NCBI GenBank assembly: GCA_030526485.1
Contig: JAUNCS010000012.1
Location: 1 to 47,932, forward strand
Origin: Erysipelotrichaceae bacterium
GTDB lineage: Bacteria > Bacillota_I > Bacilli_A > Erysipelotrichales > Erysipelotrichaceae
Direction: 5' to 3'
Length of the DNA: 47,932 bases
Below the pieces are notes generated by a model that was not told the origin of the DNA, made no database searches, and saw only the letters and a program-made list of their open reading frames with translations. Shown here piece by piece: positions 25,250 through 36,637 of the stretch. The position numbers were made by a program, and so were the translations under genes. Position 1 is the first letter of the stretch. Every line of letters starts with the position of its first letter.

Positions 25250-25277
25250 AAATAAAAAAGGAATCTTTTAGATTCCT
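25250..25277 (-). terminator. Terminator of the downstream DAHP synthase gene
   Basis: On the minus strand the stem AGGAATC / GATTCCT is followed by TTTTTTATT. The TAA stop codon of the gene (25268-25270) lies mostly within the loop of the hairpin. Confidence 0.85.
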
Positions 25278-26311
25278 AATTGTCCATGTAGCGCTAAGAC
25301 CAGCTTTTCAGTTTTTTCCCAACCGATGCAGGCATCAGTAATAGACTGGCCATATACTTCACCGCCTGGTTTTTGGTTGCCATCAACAAGATAGCTTTCA
25401 ATCATTAAACCTTTTACCAGTTTATGAATATCTTTAGAAACAAATCTTGAATGAATGACATCAGAGGCAATACGCATCTGTTCTTCATACTGCTTGCCAG
25501 AATTTGAATGGTTGCAGTCAACGATGACAGCTGGATATTTAATGCCAGAGTCTTCATATAATTTTAAGATAGTCTTTAATTCTTCATAGTGATAGTTAGG
25601 GTAGGCATTGCCAAACTTATCAACATAGCCTCTTAAGATACAATGGCTTAAGTTGTTACCCTTAGATTCTACTTCATAACCGCGGTAGACAAAGCGGTGC
25701 TTGGCATTGGCAGCGATAATCGCATTCATCATTACCGAATAGTCACCACTTGTTGGATTTTTCATACCTACCGGTACATTGACGATAGAGCCAACCATAC
25801 GGTGTAACTGATTTTCAACACTTCTGGCACCAACTGCTACATATGCCAGTAAGTCACTTAGATATGCGTAGTTTTCTGGATATAGCATTTCATCAGCACA
25901 GGTAAAGCCTGTTTCTCTGATTACTCTTAGATGCAGTTCTCTAATCGCAATAATGCCAGCCAGCATATCTTCTTCTTTAGTAGGATCGGGCTGGTGCAGC
26001 ATGCCCTTATAGCCAATACCCTTGGTACGTGGTTTATTGGTATAAACTCTTGGTACAATCACAATCTTGTCGATTACTTTTTTCTGCAACTTCTTTAGAC
26101 GATGCATATATTCCATTACGGCATCTTCTCTATCAGCTGAACATGGGCCGATGATTAATAATAATCTTTTATCTTTGCCAGTAAAGATATTTTTAATAAT
26201 CTGGTCTCTTTCTTCTTTGATCTTGCGGCATTCTTCATCAAGGGGGTATTGTTCCTTGATTTCAAATGGCGAAGGTAATTCTCTAATAACTTTTAAATTT
26301 GCGTCTAACAT
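25268..26311 (-). CDS. 3-deoxy-7-phosphoheptulonate (DAHP) synthase, paralogue 1
   Basis: The 347-residue protein is a class I (AroFGH-type) DAHP synthase. It joins phosphoenolpyruvate and erythrose 4-phosphate in the first step of the shikimate pathway. The active-site motifs LLIIGPCSADRED, NKPRTKGIGYKG, GFTCADEMLYPE and VIVDCNHSNSGK are intact, so it should be active. It lies downstream of a very similar paralogue in the same direction, with a terminator between them. Such pairs usually differ in feedback inhibition by Phe or Tyr; which is which cannot be told. Confidence 0.94.
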   Translation of the reverse strand: MLDANLKVIRELPSPFEIKEQYPLDEECRKIKEERDQIIKNIFTGKDKRLLLIIGPCSADREDAVMEYMHRLKKLQKKVIDKIVIVPRVYTNKPRTKGIGYKGMLHQPDPTKEEDMLAGIIAIRELHLRVIRETGFTCADEMLYPENYAYLSDLLAYVAVGARSVENQLHRMVGSIVNVPVGMKNPTSGDYSVMMNAIIAANAKHRFVYRGYEVESKGNNLSHCILRGYVDKFGNAYPNYHYEELKTILKLYEDSGIKYPAVIVDCNHSNSGKQYEEQMRIASDVIHSRFVSKDIHKLVKGLMIESYLVDGNQKPGGEVYGQSITDACIGWEKTEKLVLALHGQLGI

Positions 26312-26361: not shown

Positions 26362-26391
26362 TAAAAAAAGCCACTTAGCGTGACTTTAGAT
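26362..26391 (-). terminator. Terminator between the two DAHP synthase genes
   Basis: On the minus strand the stem AAGTCAC / GTGGCTT (one G-T pair) with a GCTAA loop is followed by TTTTTTATT. It begins at the TAA stop of the upstream gene, so the two genes are at least partly separate transcripts. Confidence 0.82.
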
Positions 26392-27426
26392 TCCCATTTG
26401 GCCGTGTAAGGCAAGTACCAGCTTTTCAGTCTTTTCCCAGCCGATGCAGGCATCAGTAATAGACTGACCATATACTTCACCACCTGGCTGCTGGTTTCCA
26501 TCAACTAGATAGCTTTCAATCATTAAACCTTTTACCAGTTTATGAATGTCTTTTGAGACAAATCTTGAATGAATGACATCAGAGGCAATACGTAACTGTT
26601 CCTCATATTTCTTGGCAGAATTTGAATGGTTACAGTCAACGATGACTGCTGGATTCTTTAGATCACTGTCCTTATAAGCCTCCAGAACCATAGAAATATC
26701 TTCGTAATGATAATTAGGATATGCCTTGTTGAAACGGTCGACATAGCCTCTTAAAATGGCGTGTGTTAAAGGATTCCCCTTAGACTGTACTTCATAGCCA
26801 CGATAGACAAACTTCTGGGCTGATTGAGCAGCTACGATAGAATTCATCATAACGCTTAAGTCACCACTGGTAGGATTTTTCATACCAACTGGTTCATCGA
26901 TCATGGAAGCCACCATACGGTGCTGCTGGTTTTCAACACTTCTGGCACCTACGGCATTATAAGCCAGTAAGTCGCTTAGATAAGCGTAGTTTTCTGGATA
27001 CAGCATTTCATCAGCGCAGGTAAAACCAGTTTCTCTGATTACTCTTAGATGCAGTTCTCTAATCGCAATAATGCCAGCCAGCATATCTTCTTCTTTGGTA
27101 GGATCGGGCTGGTGCAGCATACCCTTATAACCTACGCCCTTAGTACGGGGCTTATTAGTGTAGACACGAGGGATGAAAACTATCTTATCAATAACTTTCT
27201 TCTGCAGTTTCTTTAAACGATGCATGTATTCCATTACCGCATCTTCTCTATCAGCTGAACATGGGCCAATAATCAGCAGTAATCTTTTATCTTTACCGGT
27301 AAAGATATTCTTAATAATCTGGTCTCTCTCAGCCTTAATTTTCTTGCACTCATCATCCAATGGATAAAGTTTTTTTATTTCATCAGGCGATGGTAATTCT
27401 CTTATAAATGTTGCGTTTTTACTCAT
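26386..27426 (-). CDS. 3-deoxy-7-phosphoheptulonate (DAHP) synthase, paralogue 2
   Basis: The 346-residue protein matches its neighbour over the whole length, with all class I DAHP synthase motifs present (GPCSADRED, NKPRTKGVGYKG, TCADEMLYPE, DCNHSNSAK). The two proteins are almost identical at residues 25-165 and in the last 60 residues but diverge between about 165 and 290 and at the extreme N-terminus. Parts also match closely at the DNA level. The start has a TAAGG site. It is divergent from the WXG100 operon across a 107-nt gap. Confidence 0.94.
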   Translation of the reverse strand: MSKNATFIRELPSPDEIKKLYPLDDECKKIKAERDQIIKNIFTGKDKRLLLIIGPCSADREDAVMEYMHRLKKLQKKVIDKIVFIPRVYTNKPRTKGVGYKGMLHQPDPTKEEDMLAGIIAIRELHLRVIRETGFTCADEMLYPENYAYLSDLLAYNAVGARSVENQQHRMVASMIDEPVGMKNPTSGDLSVMMNSIVAAQSAQKFVYRGYEVQSKGNPLTHAILRGYVDRFNKAYPNYHYEDISMVLEAYKDSDLKNPAVIVDCNHSNSAKKYEEQLRIASDVIHSRFVSKDIHKLVKGLMIESYLVDGNQQPGGEVYGQSITDACIGWEKTEKLVLALHGQMGI

Positions 27427-27533: not shown

Positions 27534-27836
27534 ATGAATAACTTAATCAACGTCGAACCTGGGCGTTTGGAAGAAGTTGCCAGCAGGGTAGAAACTGCCG
27601 ATTTGGATTATCAGCGACTTTTCAAAATGCTTTATCAGGAAATTGACAAACTTGCCGGAAACTGGGGTGGAAAGGATAATCTGGCCTTTACCAGTCGTAT
27701 TAAGTCTTTTGAAGATGACTTCAGACAGATTTCAATTATCAATCGCCAGTATGCGGAATATTTAAGAAGCTCAGCCAAGGCTTATCGCGAAGTTCAGGAA
27801 GAACTGACCAGTTCAGCTAATCGTTTAAAAGTGTAG
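27534..27836 (+). CDS. WXG100 family protein (ESAT-6-like), first
   Basis: The 100-residue, all-helical protein has the WxG turn at Trp44-Gly45-Gly46 between two long helices, the length and layout of WXG100 proteins. Such proteins are exported as dimers by type VII secretion systems and act as substrates or cofactors. There is no signal peptide. I do not see a YxxxD/E tail motif after the second helix. It is the first gene of a tight operon with AGGAGG upstream. Confidence 0.88.
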   Translation: MNNLINVEPGRLEEVASRVETADLDYQRLFKMLYQEIDKLAGNWGGKDNLAFTSRIKSFEDDFRQISIINRQYAEYLRSSAKAYREVQEELTSSANRLKV

Positions 27837-27848
27837 GAGGAAAATTAA

Positions 27849-28145
27849 ATGGAAGAAATTAGAATCAGCTTACCGGAAGTCAGCAGTTGTGCCAGTACTA
27901 TCAGAGTAATCAATGCCAGTCTTGATGATACTCTAAGCAATATCTCTGGCAGTATGAGGGAACTGACTGGTGTCTGGAAGGGTACGGCGGGTGAGAGTAT
28001 CGTTTCCCGTTTTCAGAAGTATGCGACAAAATTTATTGATGAAAGTGAAACAATTGAAGAATATGCCAAGTTTCTGGATTATATCGTATCGACATATGAC
28101 TCAATTGAGACAACCTTAACTACTAATGCGTCAAACTTTGAGTAG
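27849..28145 (+). CDS. WXG100 family protein (ESAT-6-like), second
   Basis: The 98-residue, all-helical protein has the WxG turn at Trp43-Lys44-Gly45 and a YxxxE sequence at Tyr83-Glu87, which matches the type VII export tail signal. It likely pairs with the previous product, giving one partner with and one without the tail signal as in the EsxA/EsxB pair. A Cys at position 14 is unusual. The end overlaps the lipoprotein gene by 20 nt. Confidence 0.88.
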   Translation: MEEIRISLPEVSSCASTIRVINASLDDTLSNISGSMRELTGVWKGTAGESIVSRFQKYATKFIDESETIEEYAKFLDYIVSTYDSIETTLTTNASNFE

Positions 28146-30006
28146 GAAAGTCCTGATTTCCTTAATAAGTATCTTGTTACTCTTGACTCTGGGTGCCTGT
28201 AAGAAGAAGGAACCCATCAAGACAGAAGAATATCTTTCAATATTGAGTGACAGAATGGGCCTTGAAGGTGATGCTTATGAAAACCTTATTAAGTGGGGAA
28301 TCGTTGATGAAAATGAGAAACAAGAAGAATACCTCGATTATGACTACCTCTATAAGACAATGAACAGGCTATTGCCTGATAACAACTATAAGATAGTGCC
28401 TAATAGTGAAATGGTCGATAGAGAAACAGCCATCAGATATATTGATAAGGCTGTAGCTTCAATCAACAATCAAAGTTTTAAGGAAAAATTTGAGGTCAAG
28501 GAAAAGGAAGAAGTCATTAAACTAGATGATTACACACTGTTAAATGACAGTTTAAAGTGTGACAAAGCTTTAAAGATTAATGATTATATCTATCTGCAAG
28601 ATGAAGGGTCTTATAAGAAAATCATTGGTTATCGTGGTGACTACTATGCCTTTAAGGATGTGAGTTTTGAAGAAATAATTGCGGAAATTGAAATCAGTGA
28701 TTCTTTTGAAATTGATTTTGAAAATGCGGAAATCATCAGTCCAGAAACAGAAAAAGAAGCTGTCTACTTTAATGAAGACAGACAGCTTCTTTCTTCTACC
28801 TTATTGTCTAATACCTTCTGTAAAGATGGATATCGCATATCCTATAGCTTTAAGTCTAATTCCTTAAGTGCCCGTATCAGTAAGGAAATAAATAAGAAAA
28901 ATGTCTTTTTAGATATCAGCGTCAGTGGTATTAAACCTTCTTTTAAATGGAAGTATCAGGATGGTAACGTTCTAGAAACCTACATGAAGATTGACTTTAA
29001 GAGCAGTGAAGAATTGGGCGTGAGTGATGGTACCTATAAGAATTATTATCTGGATTTAAAGAATGAGGATGGCATTGGCTTTAAGAAGTTTATTAATTCT
29101 AAGTTAAGAAACAGCGAAGAAGATATTGAAACAACTATCAAGATTTGTGAGATTAAAACACCGTTACCCAATATCCCTTCGGCCTATTTCAATATCGATG
29201 TTTTAGCTAAAATCTATACTTCAGGTAAGGTGGAACTCTTGCTGCAGAATAATCATTCATTAGGTTTTGAAGTAAAGAATGGAGTTTTCAGAGTAATTAA
29301 TGATACCGATAGGGACCTGGACTTTAAGATTGGTGCCAGTTCTAAGGCTGCCTTGGGTCTTAACTTTAATCTTGAAGCCAGCAAATACCGATTAATGGAT
29401 ATTGAACTGGATGGTGGTATTAGAGCGGCAGTTTCTAGTACTATGCATATTTATGATAAAGAAGGAGATAAAACAGAGGAAGCAAGCGATATTCCTTATT
29501 CGGTACTTGATGAAGTAGCCAGGGAAAATGAGGATGTAAAGATTTGTGGAGACCTCTCTTTAAACTGGATAATGGATATTAATTTTAATACTTCTAAATC
29601 CTTGTTAAGCAAGTTTGGCTTTAGTGCATCCAAGACCATTCTTGATGCCGGGGATCAGATTTTTGATAACTATACCCACATTGAAAATATGGCCTTGGTT
29701 AAAAAGTGTACCCGTAAGGCCAAATATAAGACTAATGTTAAGGACTTCAGCACAAATGTTGAAAAGATAATTCTGGAAAAATATTCCAAGGTTATTAAGA
29801 TTGGTGAAACAACAAATGTCCCAATCAGATTACTTCCTAAGGATATGAGCGAAAAAGATCTGATCTATACTAGTTCCAATAATGAAGTAGCTATTGTAAA
29901 TGAAAGTGGTTTGATTATAGGCCTAAAAAGAGGTTCAAGTCTGATTACAATAAGCAGTAAAGATAATAAGTATTCAACTCAGTTTGATATTTTGGTGAGT
30001 GACTAA
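28126..30006 (+). CDS. Large lipoprotein with C-terminal BIG2-like domain in the T7SS-like operon
   Basis: The 626-residue protein has a lipoprotein signal with lipobox LGAC and Cys25. The bulk (30-580) is an acidic and Lys-rich, beta-rich ectodomain I do not recognise. The last 50 residues fit a bacterial Ig-like group 2 fold (YTSSNNEVAIVNESGLI, then GLKRGSSLITI). It overlaps the second WXG100 gene by 20 nt and abuts the EssC-like gene. A TTG start four codons later (28138) is possible. It stands where EssB or EsaA would be expected, but resembles neither by eye. Confidence 0.85.
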   Translation: MRQTLSRKVLISLISILLLLTLGACKKKEPIKTEEYLSILSDRMGLEGDAYENLIKWGIVDENEKQEEYLDYDYLYKTMNRLLPDNNYKIVPNSEMVDRETAIRYIDKAVASINNQSFKEKFEVKEKEEVIKLDDYTLLNDSLKCDKALKINDYIYLQDEGSYKKIIGYRGDYYAFKDVSFEEIIAEIEISDSFEIDFENAEIISPETEKEAVYFNEDRQLLSSTLLSNTFCKDGYRISYSFKSNSLSARISKEINKKNVFLDISVSGIKPSFKWKYQDGNVLETYMKIDFKSSEELGVSDGTYKNYYLDLKNEDGIGFKKFINSKLRNSEEDIETTIKICEIKTPLPNIPSAYFNIDVLAKIYTSGKVELLLQNNHSLGFEVKNGVFRVINDTDRDLDFKIGASSKAALGLNFNLEASKYRLMDIELDGGIRAAVSSTMHIYDKEGDKTEEASDIPYSVLDEVARENEDVKICGDLSLNWIMDINFNTSKSLLSKFGFSASKTILDAGDQIFDNYTHIENMALVKKCTRKAKYKTNVKDFSTNVEKIILEKYSKVIKIGETTNVPIRLLPKDMSEKDLIYTSSNNEVAIVNESGLIIGLKRGSSLITISSKDNKYSTQFDILVSD

Positions 30007-30007
30007 A

Positions 30008-33000
30008 ATGTATATCGTAATTGAAGATGGAATCAGCTTTATCAGGTTTAATCTGGATAAGGAAAGTCTGCCCTTAAGCTATAAGGGTATTGAGATATTA
30101 AAGAAAAACGAATACTATTATCTCTCTTTAAAGAAGGGCTATTTCTTTGATGACCGCGATAAGGTTAGAAGAATTGAATATAAGAAATATATTATCAAGC
30201 ACAAGGAACTTTTCTTTGATATTAAGATTTATGTCTATAAAGATGATAAGGGCTTTTATGACTATCAATTATATGAAAATAAGCCTTTTATTGTCGCTGC
30301 TTCTAGCAAGGCTAACATCGTTAATCGTGATCAGTATCTGTCAAATTATTATCTTTACTACAAGGAAAAGAAACTGGAGACCAATTCTGACTGCCTATTA
30401 TTAAATGGGCGTCTATATAAGAGTGAGGAACTGAAAGATGGTGATGAGATAAGTTTTTATAACTTTATCTTTTATTACTATGACACTTATCTTTATATCA
30501 ACAGTTTCCAGGTAGAGAATAAGTTGCCTCTAAAACATATTGATGAACAGCTGATTGTCTATAAGGAAGAAAAGGTTCCAATAAAGAGTCACTATCTTCC
30601 TAAGAAAAAAGAGATTGTTTTAAAAGATATAAAGAATTATGAAGAAGTAAGAAAAGTAACCGGTAAGAATCTGATACTAAGCATTGGTCCGAGTCTAACC
30701 ATGAGTATCGGGATGTTTGGTATAGCTGGTATCAATCTCTATAATCTTTATTTAAATAATGGCAGTTTACTAAATGGAATTATTTATCTTTTAATGCCTC
30801 TTACCATGCTTGTATCAGGGATAGTCTGGCCTTTGATCGCTAATAAGAGCGAGAAGAAACAGAATCTTTTGGAGATAAAGGAAAACAAGGATAAGTATCT
30901 TTCTTATCTAAGTGATTATGAGAATAAGGTTCAGAAAGAAATCGATGATTATTTAAAAGAAGAAAGACAGTATTACTTTGATGGTGAATTAAACAAAGAT
31001 AAGCTTTTTTATATCACGGATAAAAGTGAGGAATTTCTAAAGGTCAGTATTGGCTTTATTACTTCTAAATATCCAAAAGAATACAAGGAATATGAAGATG
31101 AAGATGTTAATGAGGGAATAAGAAGAATTGAATACCGTTTAAACAATATTGAGAATTGCCCATATTACATATCGCTTTTAGAGAAAAGACTGGTATCAGT
31201 TATTTCTAAAAAGAGTCAGAGGATGTATCTCTTTAAAAAGTTTGCTTTAGAACTGTCCAGTAAGTATCACTATGAAGATTTCTATCTGGCTTTATATGCT
31301 GAGGATATTAATCAGCTCAGTGAACTTTATTCTTTGCCACAGCTGATGTTTAATAACACACGCTTAACTTTAAATAAGAAAAGAGAGCTGCAGGAATTAA
31401 ACAGTACTTTACTGGATAAGCCTTTAATCCTTTTATCTTTGGATAAGATTAATATCAGTATCACTAATCCTAATATCCACTTATTGTATTTCTGTAACGA
31501 TATTAATTCAGTCTATAAGAATTCGGAAGTTGTAGTAGAGTATCGGAATGATGGTGGAACCATTTATCTTGAAGAGCAGCTGCCTTTTACTTTTAAGGAG
31601 TTTGAACTGGATGTAAAGGCATATGTTAAAACGCTGGGTTTATATCAGAAGACCAATTATTTAAATAAGACCTTAACTTTTAAAGATATCTTTAAGGATA
31701 TCGATGTGAAGAATAATTATCTGGAAAAACAGGTGGGACTTAGAGCTGATTTTGCGACAATTTCCAAGGAAGTCATGTCCTTTGACTTACATGAAAGTAA
31801 GCAGGGTCCTCATGGCTTAATCGGTGGTTCTACTGGCTCTGGTAAGTCAGAACTTATTGTGTCAATGTTACTTTCACTGTGTTTTAGATATCGACCAGAT
31901 TATTTAAATATCATTTTGATTGATTATAAGGGCGGTGGTATTGAAGAATCTTTATCTTATAAGGGACAAAGATTACCGCATATTGTAGCTTCAGTGAATA
32001 ATCTGGAAAATGATATCTTTGAAAGATTAATTTTAAGAATTGATTATGAATGTAAAAGAAGACAAAGACTCTTTAAGGAACTTTCCAATAAGGCTATGAC
32101 TTCCATTATGAATATTGATGATTATCTAGATAATAATTATGAAAAGTTTGGCTTGGAATCGATGGCACATCTCTTGATTGTGGTTGATGAATTTGCGGAA
32201 CTAAAGAAAGAAAATCCCCAGATTATTAAGGAACTGATATCTTTCTCAAGAATTGGTCGAAGCCTGGGCATTCATTTAATATTGGCAACCCAAAGACCAA
32301 GTGGATCCATTGATGATGAAATCTGGTCTAATTCCCGTTTTAAGATAGCTTTAAAAGTATTATCCGAAAAAGACTCCAACGACATTATCAAGAGTAAGGA
32401 AGCCGCCATGTTATGTAATCCTGGTGAATTTTATCTGCAGGTTGATGGCAGTCTCGTTAAGGCTAAGGCCTTATACAGTAAGAAAGACATTAATAATGCC
32501 GATAACTATGAGGTGGCTCTGTTGGATAATCGTCTTAATACTTTATGTAAGAAAAAGGTAAAGGGCGAACTGAGTGAAACCGAGGCATCTTACCTGGTTA
32601 GAAAGATCATTGAAACCAGTGATGAATTAAACATTGATAGTGTACCGATGGGCTTTGATAAACCATCGGCTAAGAAAAGAAATGAATTAATTGAAGAATA
32701 TCATACTGATGGAATTATCCTTGGTGAAATAGATGATTATCTAAATTCCAGAAAAGATATCTTGTTTATCCCGGAAGAAGAAAATGCCTTGATTATTTCA
32801 AGTCGTAAAAACGAAATCAATAATCTGATCAATTCTATAAAAGATGATCTGATACTGATTGGTCAAAATAAAGTTGAGAAAGAAAATATCATTGAATATT
32901 TAAATTATGAAGAAGTAGAGGATATTAAATTTACTTTTGAAAAGTTATTAAAAGAAAACAAGCCTTTAACATTACTGATAGAAGATATCTCCATTCTCTT

Positions 33001-33628
33001 GGCCTATAGCGATGACTTTATTTCTTATTTGTATCAGCTATTAAAGAGGAATATCATTCGGATTATCGCTATCAGTAAGACTTCGAATTTGAATTTTAAA
33101 TTAATCAACAGTTTTAAGAATAAGTATCTGATTGAGACAAATGATAAGCAGGATCTCATTAATATCTTTTCGGCTTATTCAGCTTATAAGGGTAATTCTT
33201 TTGCCTATACCGACAAGCTTGTTTCCTTTGTTCCACTTGTGATTGAAGAAATAGAGAAAGGAGTAAATCATCGCCGATATATCAATCGCATTCCGGATAT
33301 TGTGAAATATGAAAAAGGTTTAATAGGCATTGATTTAAATAATCGTGAAAAGATTTATCTAAGAGAAGATGAAAGTCTTTTAATCACTTCTTATGAAGAA
33401 AGAACTGTGGAGAAATATAAAGAAATCTATATGGATGATCCAAATATAAGCGTTGAATTATACGATAAGAAACTGAAGGATGAATATTCTAATTATCTGT
33501 GGTTAGGCAGAGATATTTACAGTCAGAAGCTCTTTTATGGAAATATGTTGAAAGAACTGGAAAACGGTCAGGGCTACCTGTTTAAGGATAATAAGACATA
33601 CTTATTGAAGGTGGTGGATAATGAATAA
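30008..33628 (+). CDS. EssC/YukB-like FtsK-SpoIIIE ATPase with one intact P-loop
   Basis: The ATG at 30008 is chosen over a GTG three codons earlier because it clears the lipoprotein stop and has GGTGAG upstream. The 1206-residue product has FHA-like beta regions (about 1-165), two membrane segments (about 222-270), a linker and one FtsK domain with Walker A GSTGSGKS at 607-614 and Walker B LLIVVDE at 722-728. The last 320 residues look like a further ATPase module without a Walker A. EssC has two or three ATPase modules and is near 1450-1500 residues. This is the likely motor of the WXG100 proteins. Confidence 0.9.
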   Translation: MYIVIEDGISFIRFNLDKESLPLSYKGIEILKKNEYYYLSLKKGYFFDDRDKVRRIEYKKYIIKHKELFFDIKIYVYKDDKGFYDYQLYENKPFIVAASSKANIVNRDQYLSNYYLYYKEKKLETNSDCLLLNGRLYKSEELKDGDEISFYNFIFYYYDTYLYINSFQVENKLPLKHIDEQLIVYKEEKVPIKSHYLPKKKEIVLKDIKNYEEVRKVTGKNLILSIGPSLTMSIGMFGIAGINLYNLYLNNGSLLNGIIYLLMPLTMLVSGIVWPLIANKSEKKQNLLEIKENKDKYLSYLSDYENKVQKEIDDYLKEERQYYFDGELNKDKLFYITDKSEEFLKVSIGFITSKYPKEYKEYEDEDVNEGIRRIEYRLNNIENCPYYISLLEKRLVSVISKKSQRMYLFKKFALELSSKYHYEDFYLALYAEDINQLSELYSLPQLMFNNTRLTLNKKRELQELNSTLLDKPLILLSLDKINISITNPNIHLLYFCNDINSVYKNSEVVVEYRNDGGTIYLEEQLPFTFKEFELDVKAYVKTLGLYQKTNYLNKTLTFKDIFKDIDVKNNYLEKQVGLRADFATISKEVMSFDLHESKQGPHGLIGGSTGSGKSELIVSMLLSLCFRYRPDYLNIILIDYKGGGIEESLSYKGQRLPHIVASVNNLENDIFERLILRIDYECKRRQRLFKELSNKAMTSIMNIDDYLDNNYEKFGLESMAHLLIVVDEFAELKKENPQIIKELISFSRIGRSLGIHLILATQRPSGSIDDEIWSNSRFKIALKVLSEKDSNDIIKSKEAAMLCNPGEFYLQVDGSLVKAKALYSKKDINNADNYEVALLDNRLNTLCKKKVKGELSETEASYLVRKIIETSDELNIDSVPMGFDKPSAKKRNELIEEYHTDGIILGEIDDYLNSRKDILFIPEEENALIISSRKNEINNLINSIKDDLILIGQNKVEKENIIEYLNYEEVEDIKFTFEKLLKENKPLTLLIEDISILLAYSDDFISYLYQLLKRNIIRIIAISKTSNLNFKLINSFKNKYLIETNDKQDLINIFSAYSAYKGNSFAYTDKLVSFVPLVIEEIEKGVNHRRYINRIPDIVKYEKGLIGIDLNNREKIYLREDESLLITSYEERTVEKYKEIYMDDPNISVELYDKKLKDEYSNYLWLGRDIYSQKLFYGNMLKELENGQGYLFKDNKTYLLKVVDNE

Positions 33629-33851
33629 GATAATTCTGCGATTACACATTCTTTCTTTAAACAAGGTCTATGAAGTTATCTTTGATACCCGTTTAAGTTT
33701 TAGAGAAAACCTGAAGATACTAAACGAATTAGTTGATTTGAAAAACAGGGATTACTATATCTTTGACCCAGAAAAGAAGATAGCTTTAAAAAGAGATATA
33801 CCCTTAAAGGACTTTAATTTTAGAGCTTTTAAAAATCTGAACCTGTATTAG
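33621..33851 (+). CDS. EsaB/YukD-like small ubiquitin-fold protein (probable)
   Basis: The 76-residue protein begins MNKIILRLHILSLNKVYEVIFD, has a central helix (RENLKILNEL) and ends in KRDIPLKDFNFRAFKNLNLY. This strand-helix-strand order and size fit YukD/EsaB, a ubiquitin-fold component of Firmicute type VII systems. The identity rests on context and pattern rather than a clear motif. It overlaps the ATPase gene by 8 nt and ends the operon at a terminator. Confidence 0.6.
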   Translation: MNKIILRLHILSLNKVYEVIFDTRLSFRENLKILNELVDLKNRDYYIFDPEKKIALKRDIPLKDFNFRAFKNLNLY

Positions 33852-33880
33852 AAAGCTGTCATTTACTGACAGTTTTCTAA
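33851..33880 (+). terminator. Terminator of the WXG100/EssC operon
   Basis: The stem GAAAGCTGTCA / TGACAGTTTTC (one G-T pair) with a TTTAC loop starts at the stop codon and is followed by TAATAATG. The T-run is part of the stem's 3' arm, so termination may be only moderately efficient. Confidence 0.75.
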
Positions 33881-33883
33881 TAA

Positions 33884-33898: not shown

Positions 33899-36637
33899 AT
33901 GAATTTATTTCAGAAATGTCTTTTAGTATGGCTTGTTTTAGGGATGGTATTAACAAATTCCGCTAAAGTAAGTGCTGATGAGATTAAATATAGCGTAGCT
34001 GATGTCTCTTCTGGTGAGAATAATGTTTTAGAGAGCTTTGCCACTTTTACAGCGGCCAATAACTACTTTAGAAGACATGTAAATGAATATGATAATCTGG
34101 TTATTTATTATGGTGAACAGGTTGTAAAGATGGAATATGGTGTCGTTGAGTTTAAGACCAATGATGCCTGTACTCTAAAGACTGAATACCGTTCTACCAT
34201 TTCGAAGAATAATTCAACTATCAATGGCTGTTATGGCAGGGATGCAGCTTATTTATATACTGACACTGCCAATGAAACGGTTTATTTTAAATTGAGTGGC
34301 GATACTGGTTATATCGACTTAGAGGATGTAAGACTGATTCCTTTGGAATTATTAAATGTCAGACCCTCAGCTTATATGAATATTGATGGTACTTTCTATC
34401 ATTTGATTAAGAGTCAGCTGGACAGTGATTTCTACTATAAGTCTCTTGAACTGGATAAATCACTTGGTTTTCTAAAGGATAAGACTCCTTATTATTCATA
34501 TGATGGCAATTATTTCTATGAAGACTATAAGACCATGATTGATGATTATCTAGGTGGTACATATGAGAATGCGGTTAACTTTGATAATCCTTACTATAAC
34601 TATTATCAGTATCTGAACTATCGTTCTTTTACTAATTATGAATACAGTGATATTGAAAAGTATTTCTATGAAATCTTAATGATTGATGGAAAGATTTCTT
34701 ACTATGAGGATCAGGTAAAAGATGGGGCCAATGATATCGTCAATAAGTCACAGCTTTATGGCGAATTAAAGGCTTTTGTGGAAGGGCAGAATGTCTATGG
34801 TGTAAATGCCTTAAGCTCTTTAGCTATGGCTGTAGTAGACAGTTCTTATGGCAAGAGTGAATCTTCTTTTAAGAAGAACAATGTCTTTGCCTACAGTGCT
34901 TATCATAATGATGAAGAAAGAGAGAGAAATTCTTACAACACTATTGAAGAAGGTATCCATTACTTCATTAAGTATTTCTTATCGGATAAGTATGCCTTCT
35001 ATCGCAGTGGTACTTATAATGGGGCTTACTTTGGCAATAAGCTTAGTGGTTTAAATAAGGAATATTCCAATAACCCTTATTATGGTGAAGAAGCAGCTTC
35101 TTTCTACTTTAAGTTTGATTCAGCTATGGGCTATAAGGATAAGGATGCTTACTGTTTAGGTATTGTGGATGCGCAAACTTTGCGTTTCTATAATCCAGAA
35201 GATGAAAAGGAACAGCTTTTTAAACAGACTATCAGAAATCCTAAATCCTTTATTATTCTTGATGAAACAGAAAAGTATTATCTGGTACAGTTAGAGGCCA
35301 GTGGCAACGACAGATATGTTTATGACTTTAATGATAGAGTTGCCTTATTGAAGAAAGATGTCTTTACAGCGGTTCTAAATCCGGAAAAGATGCATAAAAA
35401 TGAAGTTGTTAAGATTAACTTTGATGCGGATGGTGGGCTTATTGCTGGCAGTGAAAATATTAGTATGCAGGTTCTAGAGGGACAGACACCAGTAGTGAAC
35501 TGTGTCTTAAAAGATGGTTATGAATTTATCGACTTCGATAAGGAAGTTTTACCAGCTCTTGAAGAAGCGACATATACAGCCAAATATAAGGAGATTTCTT
35601 CTATTAAGGTCAGTGGTCATATCAATAAAGAAGTAATGCTTGATGGATCGCTGGATTTAAGAAATGGCGTCTTACAGGTTGACTATAAGGATAGAAGCCG
35701 TAAGAAGATTCCTTTAAATACCAATATGATTAAAAACTTTGATAGTTCTACTGCTGGCGAAAGTAGTATCACTATCAGTTATCAGGGTGTGGAAATTGAA
35801 TATCCAATTACTGTTTCAAGCGAATTAAGAGAGGAATATGATAGAACCACAGCTTTAATCAGCTCCAATATTGAAAATTATCAGAAGAATCAGTCTTTGC
35901 ATCTGGATGAATTAAAGAGTGTCAAGAAGAGCTTTAATAAGCTGGAATATGTCTATGATATGGAAAGCCTAAGAGACCTTGATGGTGCCTTTATGGATAC
36001 ATATCACAATAGTGCTTATTACTGTATTGATCCAAATGACTACAGTCTTTCAGTCAGTGGTCTGGCTTTATCGGTAGCTGATATCAATATCACTAATCTA
36101 TTAAAGCCTTTTAAGGATACCTACTATGTTCATATAAGAAGTGTGAATAATAATGTTAAGTCTAAGCTTGAAACAATAGCCAGTGCTTATGGCTTTGAAG
36201 TAGCAGACTTTGTGAATATTTCTTATTCGTTGAATATGCAGTCTGCCAAGCAAAAGGGTGCTACTATTATTTCTCTGCAATTACCAGACAAGGCGACCGA
36301 TAAGATTTATTCTGTTTATCGTTATGATCCAAATGGTGACATCATTAAGTGTAAGACTATTCAAAGTGAAAATCAGATTAGATTCTTAACCAAGCAGACT
36401 GGTGATTTTGCTATCCTTTCTAAGGATAGCGTTAATGACTATAAGCTGATGGATTTTGATGAAAATATCAATAAGGATAATTCCGATCCAAATAATCATG
36501 AACTGTTTATCATGGACTTTATTACTTTGGCAGTAATTGTCTATGGTTTTATTCAGATTGTGATTTATAAGGATATCGAAAGACAAAAAGAAAAGCTTTC
36601 AAAAGAATACAAGAAGCTTCTAATGAAAGCTAAATAG
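33899..36637 (+). CDS. Large secreted, membrane-tethered protein with altered glucosaminidase domain
   Basis: The 912-residue protein has a signal peptide (about 1-26). A glucosaminidase-like domain lies near residues 295-420, with NALSSLAMAVVDSSYGKSESSFKKNN split around the motif and NVFAYSAY. In GH73 enzymes the motif is ALESGWG with a catalytic Glu; here Asp314 occupies that place (VVDSSYG). Next come an InlB-like repeat (NFDADGG, DGYEFIDFD), a BIG3-like Ig domain, an unrecognised domain and a C-terminal membrane helix (about 878-897). It follows the T7SS-like operon with its own promoter. Confidence 0.82.
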   Translation: MNLFQKCLLVWLVLGMVLTNSAKVSADEIKYSVADVSSGENNVLESFATFTAANNYFRRHVNEYDNLVIYYGEQVVKMEYGVVEFKTNDACTLKTEYRSTISKNNSTINGCYGRDAAYLYTDTANETVYFKLSGDTGYIDLEDVRLIPLELLNVRPSAYMNIDGTFYHLIKSQLDSDFYYKSLELDKSLGFLKDKTPYYSYDGNYFYEDYKTMIDDYLGGTYENAVNFDNPYYNYYQYLNYRSFTNYEYSDIEKYFYEILMIDGKISYYEDQVKDGANDIVNKSQLYGELKAFVEGQNVYGVNALSSLAMAVVDSSYGKSESSFKKNNVFAYSAYHNDEERERNSYNTIEEGIHYFIKYFLSDKYAFYRSGTYNGAYFGNKLSGLNKEYSNNPYYGEEAASFYFKFDSAMGYKDKDAYCLGIVDAQTLRFYNPEDEKEQLFKQTIRNPKSFIILDETEKYYLVQLEASGNDRYVYDFNDRVALLKKDVFTAVLNPEKMHKNEVVKINFDADGGLIAGSENISMQVLEGQTPVVNCVLKDGYEFIDFDKEVLPALEEATYTAKYKEISSIKVSGHINKEVMLDGSLDLRNGVLQVDYKDRSRKKIPLNTNMIKNFDSSTAGESSITISYQGVEIEYPITVSSELREEYDRTTALISSNIENYQKNQSLHLDELKSVKKSFNKLEYVYDMESLRDLDGAFMDTYHNSAYYCIDPNDYSLSVSGLALSVADINITNLLKPFKDTYYVHIRSVNNNVKSKLETIASAYGFEVADFVNISYSLNMQSAKQKGATIISLQLPDKATDKIYSVYRYDPNGDIIKCKTIQSENQIRFLTKQTGDFAILSKDSVNDYKLMDFDENINKDNSDPNNHELFIMDFITLAVIVYGFIQIVIYKDIERQKEKLSKEYKKLLMKAK

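What the first reader, a model, noticed from the sequence alone, without database searches (positions are those of the whole stretch)
27534..33851. Reduced type VII secretion-like locus lacking EssA, EssB and EsaA
Seen: a five-gene operon of two WXG100 proteins, a 626-residue lipoprotein, an FHA/FtsK ATPase and a 76-residue ubiquitin-like protein, all overlapping or within 12 nt of each other, with one promoter element and one terminator. Known: Firmicute T7SSb systems need EssB, EsaA, EssA, EssC and EsaB. Inference: this is a minimal variant in which the BIG2-domain lipoprotein replaces the missing membrane parts. It could be a distinct secretion subtype of this lineage.
Basis: partly seen in the sequence, partly recalled or inferred. 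Interest (0 to 1): 0.68.

Follow-up and report, generated by a model that had tools for sequence, protein, structure and literature searches.

The report
Lipoprotein-type type VII secretion locus
A gut bacterium of the family Erysipelotrichaceae carries a compact five-gene protein-export locus that lacks the usual membrane parts of type VII secretion and instead pairs the export motor with a surface lipoprotein; at least 15 genera of the family share it, so it looks like an undescribed subtype of a known machine.

Summary
At 27534-33851 lies a tight cassette: EsxA, EsxB, a lipoprotein, an EssC-type ATPase and a small EsaB/YukD-like protein. It recurs in about 20 genus mates. The lipoprotein occurs in 106 of 244 sampled family genomes (15 genera); in 89 the EssC gene follows it directly. 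The own genome has no EssB, EssA or EsaA, and its only Ser/Thr kinase is housekeeping PrkC. EssB is in 2 of 244 family genomes, EssC in 140. So this is not a T7SSb with parts hidden elsewhere. The ATPases of lipoprotein-type loci form one supported clade (one row unresolved), apart from full EssC and from T7SSe/j-like loci of the same family. None is described with this lipoprotein. The lipoprotein has a lipoprotein signal, an SLH-like N-terminus, a long-stranded beta domain without a clear structural match, and a Big_2 domain. EsxB carries a YxxxD/E tail (30/30); EsxA has the WxG motif. Best reading: a new T7SS subtype in which the lipoprotein is the dedicated extracytoplasmic component. That it replaces the missing membrane parts is plausible but untested.

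The parts
27534..27836 (+). EsxA-like WXG100 protein (100 aa), WGG motif at the hairpin turn
   Evidence: Pfam WXG100 7.2e-9 over cut-off; WxG in 28 of 29 orthologues
27849..28145 (+). EsxB-like partner (98 aa) with C-terminal YxxxD/E tail (YDSIE)
   Evidence: WXG100 1.1e-8; ESAT6_2 NF035934 1.4e-28, one bit under its cut-off; YxxxD/E in 30 of 30 orthologues, WxG in only 2 of 30
28126..30006 (+). lipoprotein (626 aa): lipobox Cys25, SLH-like N-terminal helical part, long-stranded beta domain (about 115-540), C-terminal Big_2 domain
   Evidence: (SLH over cut-off in orthologue L121)
29999..33628 (+). EssC-type FtsK/SpoIIIE ATPase (1209 aa; probable start ATG 30008): FHA-like N-terminus, hydrophobic segments near 220-275, one intact ATPase domain (Walker A GSTGSGKS at residue 610), degenerate C-terminal ATPase domains
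   Evidence: TIGR03928 5.9e-95; YukB 9qks profile match E 3.7e-94; Walker A only in D1; FHA-region alignment
33621..33851 (+). EsaB/YukD-like small protein (76 aa)
   Evidence: conserved after the ATPase in 21 loci; profile chain to YukD
33846..33882 (+). strong hairpin after the last gene, probable terminator without a plain U tract
   Evidence: -19.8 kcal/mol, z -7.6
33899..36637 (+). possible accessory, not counted as core: exported glucosaminidase (912 aa) with Big_3 and C-terminal TM
   Evidence: Pfam PF01832 over cut-off; adjacent in 6 genus mates and, by size and topology, in 4 other genera; absent from that place in many others

Best explanation
The locus encodes a distinct type VII secretion subtype, mostly vertically inherited in Erysipelotrichaceae. 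An EssC-type ATPase is the only membrane-spanning protein of the cassette. It recognises an EsxA-EsxB heterodimer through the YxxxD/E tail of EsxB and drives it, with any partner substrates, across the membrane using its single intact ATPase domain. The EsaB-like protein binds the ATPase as in other T7SS. The lipoprotein is exported by Sec, sits on the outer leaflet, probably touches the wall through its SLH-like part, and uses its long beta domain as the dedicated extracytoplasmic partner of the ATPase: a vestibule, cap or anchor in the place that EsaA/EssB hold in T7SSb or the Ig-type TsxI protein holds in T7SSd/e/j. Shown: gene content, conservation, linkage, absence of EssB/EssA/EsaA and of a TsxD-type kinase, the separate ATPase clade, motifs and domains. 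Inferred: secretion itself, the heterodimer, tail recognition, and the role and contacts of the lipoprotein.
For: Fixed order in about 20 genus mates and in other genera. The lipoprotein HMM matches 106 of 244 family genomes; 89 have the EssC hit directly downstream on the same strand. EssB in 2 of 244 family genomes against EssC in 140. No EssB, EssA or EsaA over cut-off in the own genome, and its only kinase is PrkC. ATPases of lipoprotein loci form a supported clade (SH-aLRT 97, one row unresolved, one odd row inside). EsxB YxxxD/E 30/30 and EsxA WxG 28/29. Lipoprotein core in 15 of 395 genomes of the class, all in this family. An orthologue has an SLH domain over cut-off.
Against: No secretion experiment and no substrate other than EsxA/EsxB in sight (LXG proteins were not searched for). 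The own genome is a 97.8% complete draft. The lipoprotein core has no convincing structural match (best Z 6.1), so its role is inferred from linkage. The Ubl and FHA calls are indirect. Unlinked components of unknown families cannot be excluded.
Confidence: 0.68

Rival explanations
1. The machine needs further, unlinked or loosely linked envelope parts, for example the 912-aa exported glucosaminidase with a C-terminal TM, and the lipoprotein is only one of several extracytoplasmic components.
For: The glucosaminidase follows the Ubl gene in 6 genus mates and, by size and topology, in 4 other genera. A dedicated wall hydrolase, EssH, copurifies with T7SSb and is needed for EsaA assembly across the wall (PMC13059805).
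Against: The gene lies behind a strong hairpin, keeps its own synteny with neighbouring genes, and is missing from that place in many lipoprotein loci.
Confidence: 0.3
2. The lipoprotein is a co-expressed surface receptor, adhesin or immunity-like accessory, not part of the export channel; the ATPase works alone or with unknown partners.
For: Big_2 and SLH-like domains are common in surface proteins; the beta domain has no match to a secretion component.
Against: Near-invariable position between EsxB and EssC in 15 genera with overlapping or abutting reading frames, and high conservation.
Confidence: 0.2
3. It is a member of a described variant (T7SSe, T7SSj or T7SSg) that has lost or replaced genes.
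For: T7SSg has the same formula of two WXG100, Ubl, ATPase and one extra protein (PMC11217815). T7SSe/j-like loci with kinase, DUF6382-FHA and Ig-TM proteins exist in the same family, and one genome of another family has kinase, Ig-TM protein and lipoprotein together (L133).
Against: No beta-propeller family match in the lipoprotein and no Tad genes among the flanking genes tested; no T7SS kinase in the own genome; ATPase clade separate from the T7SSe/j-like loci of the family.
Confidence: 0.2
4. Classical T7SSb whose EssB, EssA and EsaA genes lie elsewhere in the genome.
For: Weak sub-threshold matches exist.
Against: The EsaA-like match is a sensor histidine kinase; EssB has no match; EssA matches are fragments at noise level.
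Confidence: 0.02

Closest known systems
T7SSg (TsgA1, TsgA2, TsgB, TsgC, TsgL; Acetivibrio, Paenibacillus), PMC11217815
   Same: five components: two WXG100 proteins, a Ubl, the ATPase and one further protein; no EssB/EssA/EsaA, no kinase
   Different: the fifth protein is a beta-propeller (DUF5050) there, an SLH-like/beta/Big_2 lipoprotein here; TsgC lacks FHA domains and the locus lies next to a Tad pilus
T7SSe and T7SSj, PMC11217815
   Same: EssC-type ATPase, Ubl and WXG100 proteins, and (T7SSe) a WXG100 pair; T7SSe/j-like loci occur in the same family
   Different: these have a membrane Ser/Thr kinase, a DUF6382-FHA protein and an Ig-type TsxI protein; none is in the window cassette
T7SSb (EsxA, EsaA, EssA, EsaB, EssB, EssC)
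   Same: EssC-type ATPase with FHA-like N-terminus, EsaB-like protein, WXG100 protein
   Different: EssB, EssA and EsaA missing; WXG100 pair instead of one; Walker A of D2 lost; extra lipoprotein
T7SSa / ESX
   Same: non-identical WXG100 pair with a YxxxD/E tail on one partner
   Different: no EccB, EccD, EccE or MycP in the cassette; ATPase is EssC-type

Membership tests
type VII secretion (any subtype) | EccC/EssC-type FtsK-related ATPase | tested here: met
   TIGR03928 5.9e-95, EccCa 5.6e-58; YukB and EccC5 structures by profile
type VII secretion (any subtype) | WXG100 protein encoded with the ATPase | tested here: met
   two Pfam WXG100 hits over cut-off, the only ones in the genome
type VII secretion (any subtype) | EsaB/YukD-like ubiquitin-fold protein (all but T7SSd) | tested here: inconclusive
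   no direct Pfam hit; indirect profile chain to YukD
type VII secretion (any subtype) | ATPase-dependent export of WXG100 proteins | not testable with these tools
   needs an experiment
T7SSb | EssB/YukC | tested here: not met
   no match in the own genome, none over cut-off in 36 genus genomes
T7SSb | EsaA | tested here: not met
   only a weak match (E 0.018), which is a sensor histidine kinase; N-terminal model, own genome only
T7SSb | EssA | tested here: not met
   no match over cut-off in 36 genus genomes; short protein, weak model
[quoted passage not shown]
   no Pfam FHA hit in 21 orthologues; profile alignment to the EssC FHA region, 91%
T7SSg | DUF5050 beta-propeller protein TsgL | tested here: not met
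   no such Pfam match in the lipoprotein family or the cassette
T7SSg | adjacent Tad pilus genes | tested here: not met
   flanking genes tested are housekeeping (EzrA, ThiI, S4, peptidases)
T7SSe / T7SSj | membrane Ser/Thr kinase TsxD | tested here: not met
   own genome has one kinase, PrkC-like, beside PP2C- and RlmN-like genes
T7SSe / T7SSj | ATPase groups with TseC/TsjC | not tested
   published TsxC sequences were not at hand; only loci of this family and one of another family were compared

The most novel reading that the evidence does not exclude
This is an eleventh T7SS subtype with a single membrane-spanning protein, in which a wall-contacting beta-rich lipoprotein, possibly of a fold not yet solved, forms the extracytoplasmic conduit that other T7SS build from membrane-spanning subunits.
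Probability: 0.3. Interest if true: 0.72.

Novelty: new variant of a known kind. Interest (0 to 1): 0.52.

Why it matters
T7SS types differ in everything but the ATPase, the WXG100 protein and (mostly) the Ubl. A cassette with only those plus one lipoprotein, kept across at least 15 genera, is close to the smallest natural T7SS and would let one ask which parts a T7SS really needs outside the membrane. It also shows that EssB-based searches miss nearly all T7SS-like loci of this family: 140 of 244 genomes have EssC, 2 have EssB.

Tried and rejected
Hidden EssB/EssA/EsaA: rejected. A TsxD-type kinase acting as EssB: the only kinase is PrkC-like. Fold of the lipoprotein: the full model matched only through the Big_2 domain; the core alone gave barrel-like and ApoB-like rows at Z up to 6.1, too weak to use. 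Direct Ubl match in Pfam or PDB sequences: none. Mobile origin: no lipoprotein match in plasmids, only generic FtsK-like matches in viral contigs (not followed up), and in several genera the cassette sits near infB. Literature on T7SS in Erysipelotrichaceae: none found (held open-access papers only).

Full report
The window is one contig (C50) of a 1.95-Mb draft genome, 97.8% complete.

The five ORFs stand as described. Pfam and NCBIfam give two WXG100 proteins, Big_2 in the lipoprotein and an EssC-type ATPase. The profile of 21 orthologous ATPases matches the solved YukB chain 9qks (E 3.7e-94) and aligns to full-length EssC over most of its length, FHA region included. Only the first ATPase domain keeps Walker A; the places of D2 and D3 lack it in 21 of 21 orthologues. 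The kinase-type loci of the family also show only one Walker A, while most full-length EssC show one in D2. The 76-aa protein has no Pfam hit, but its profile matches the small protein behind the ATPase in other lipoprotein-type genera (98.6%), of which one matches YukD (E 1.9e-4, under the cut-off).

EsxA and EsxB differ in a fixed way: WxG in 28 of 29 EsxA and 2 of 30 EsxB, YxxxD/E near the C-terminus in 30 of 30 EsxB and not at that place in EsxA. ESX pairs likewise carry the C-terminal signal on one partner (established knowledge; WXG100 pairs and their C-terminal signal are described in PMC11217815). A heterodimer here is inferred.

Conservation. The ATPase has relatives in 30 of 36 genus genomes and the gene order is the same in about 20 loci. 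The lipoprotein profile matches 106 of 244 family genomes below 1e-20; 89 have an EssC hit within 3.5 kb downstream on the same strand. Of the other 17, several are near contig ends or have the EssC hit on another contig, and nine genomes have no EssC hit under the limit of 1e-60; two of these nine, both of genus g31, gave a shorter or weaker ATPase in the one locus read (L120). Fifteen genera of the family and one genome of another family have the lipoprotein; in 395 genomes of the class its core occurs only in this family.

What is missing. EssB: none in the own genome, none over cut-off in the genus, 2 of 244 in the family, against EssC in 140. EsaA: one weak hit that is a histidine kinase. 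EssA: nothing over cut-off. Kinase: only a PrkC-like one beside PP2C- and RlmN-like genes.

Other T7SS in the family. Besides two EssB-bearing loci there are loci with a DUF6382-FHA protein, a single-TM kinase and an Ig-type TM protein, the make-up of T7SSe/j in PMC11217815. The tree of 49 ATPases puts full EssC, kinase-type and lipoprotein-type rows in separate parts; the lipoprotein rows fall in one branch with SH-aLRT 97, except one unresolved long row, and with one odd row inside. Many end branches are long and it is a quick tree, so finer order is unsafe. L133, from another family, has kinase, Ig-TM protein and lipoprotein in one locus, which suggests that the lipoprotein belonged to a fuller system before the kinase and Ig protein were lost; this is inference from one genome.

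The lipoprotein. Lipobox Cys25 is invariant. AlphaFold gives mean pLDDT 82: helical N-terminus, long strands, C-terminal Ig fold matching Big_2 structures (Z about 12). An orthologue has an SLH domain over the Pfam cut-off in the N-terminal part. The core alone (pLDDT 82.5) has no convincing PDB match; this does not show a new fold.

Known work. T7SSc-j were defined in 2024 by ATPase clade and gene set (PMC11217815). They already include systems without EssB, EssA and EsaA, so the finding is not the first such T7SS of Firmicutes. The text does not mention lipoproteins or Erysipelotrichaceae; its supplements could not be read. T7SSg is the nearest in formula. A wall hydrolase tied to T7SSb is known (EssH, PMC13059805), which keeps the neighbouring glucosaminidase (33899-36637) a candidate accessory.

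Verdict: a real, conserved, lineage-bound T7SS subtype; new variant of a known kind. The replacement role of the lipoprotein is the likely reading but untested.

Noticed in passing
window 33899-36637 (+): Exported 912-aa glucosaminidase with Big_3 domain and C-terminal TM next to the cassette; kept there in several genera together with its own neighbours.
   Followed up: partly
window 25268-26311 and 26386-27426 (-): Two tandem, very similar DAHP-synthase-like genes (347 and 346 aa) just upstream of esxA; named from sequence likeness only.
   Followed up: no
L145-L150, L155 (other genera of the family): T7SSe/j-like loci: DUF6382-FHA protein, single-TM kinase with EssB topology, Ig-type TM protein, ATPase, Ubl, WXG100 pair, and after EsxB a 260-290 aa protein that may be a substrate. 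Family matches were run for L145 only.
   Followed up: partly
L136 and L137: Full-length EssC loci without EssB, with TPR and FHA membrane proteins and (L136) a LytTR-like regulator by eye, in genomes that also carry the lipoprotein type.
   Followed up: no
L121, L125 and similar loci: In several genera the cassette lies directly after infB and a gene of rbfA size, a stable chromosomal place that speaks for vertical descent.
   Followed up: partly
L133 (G277, another family): One locus holds kinase, Ig-TM protein, ATPase, Ubl-sized gene, WXG100 pair and lipoprotein together: a possible intermediate.
   Followed up: partly
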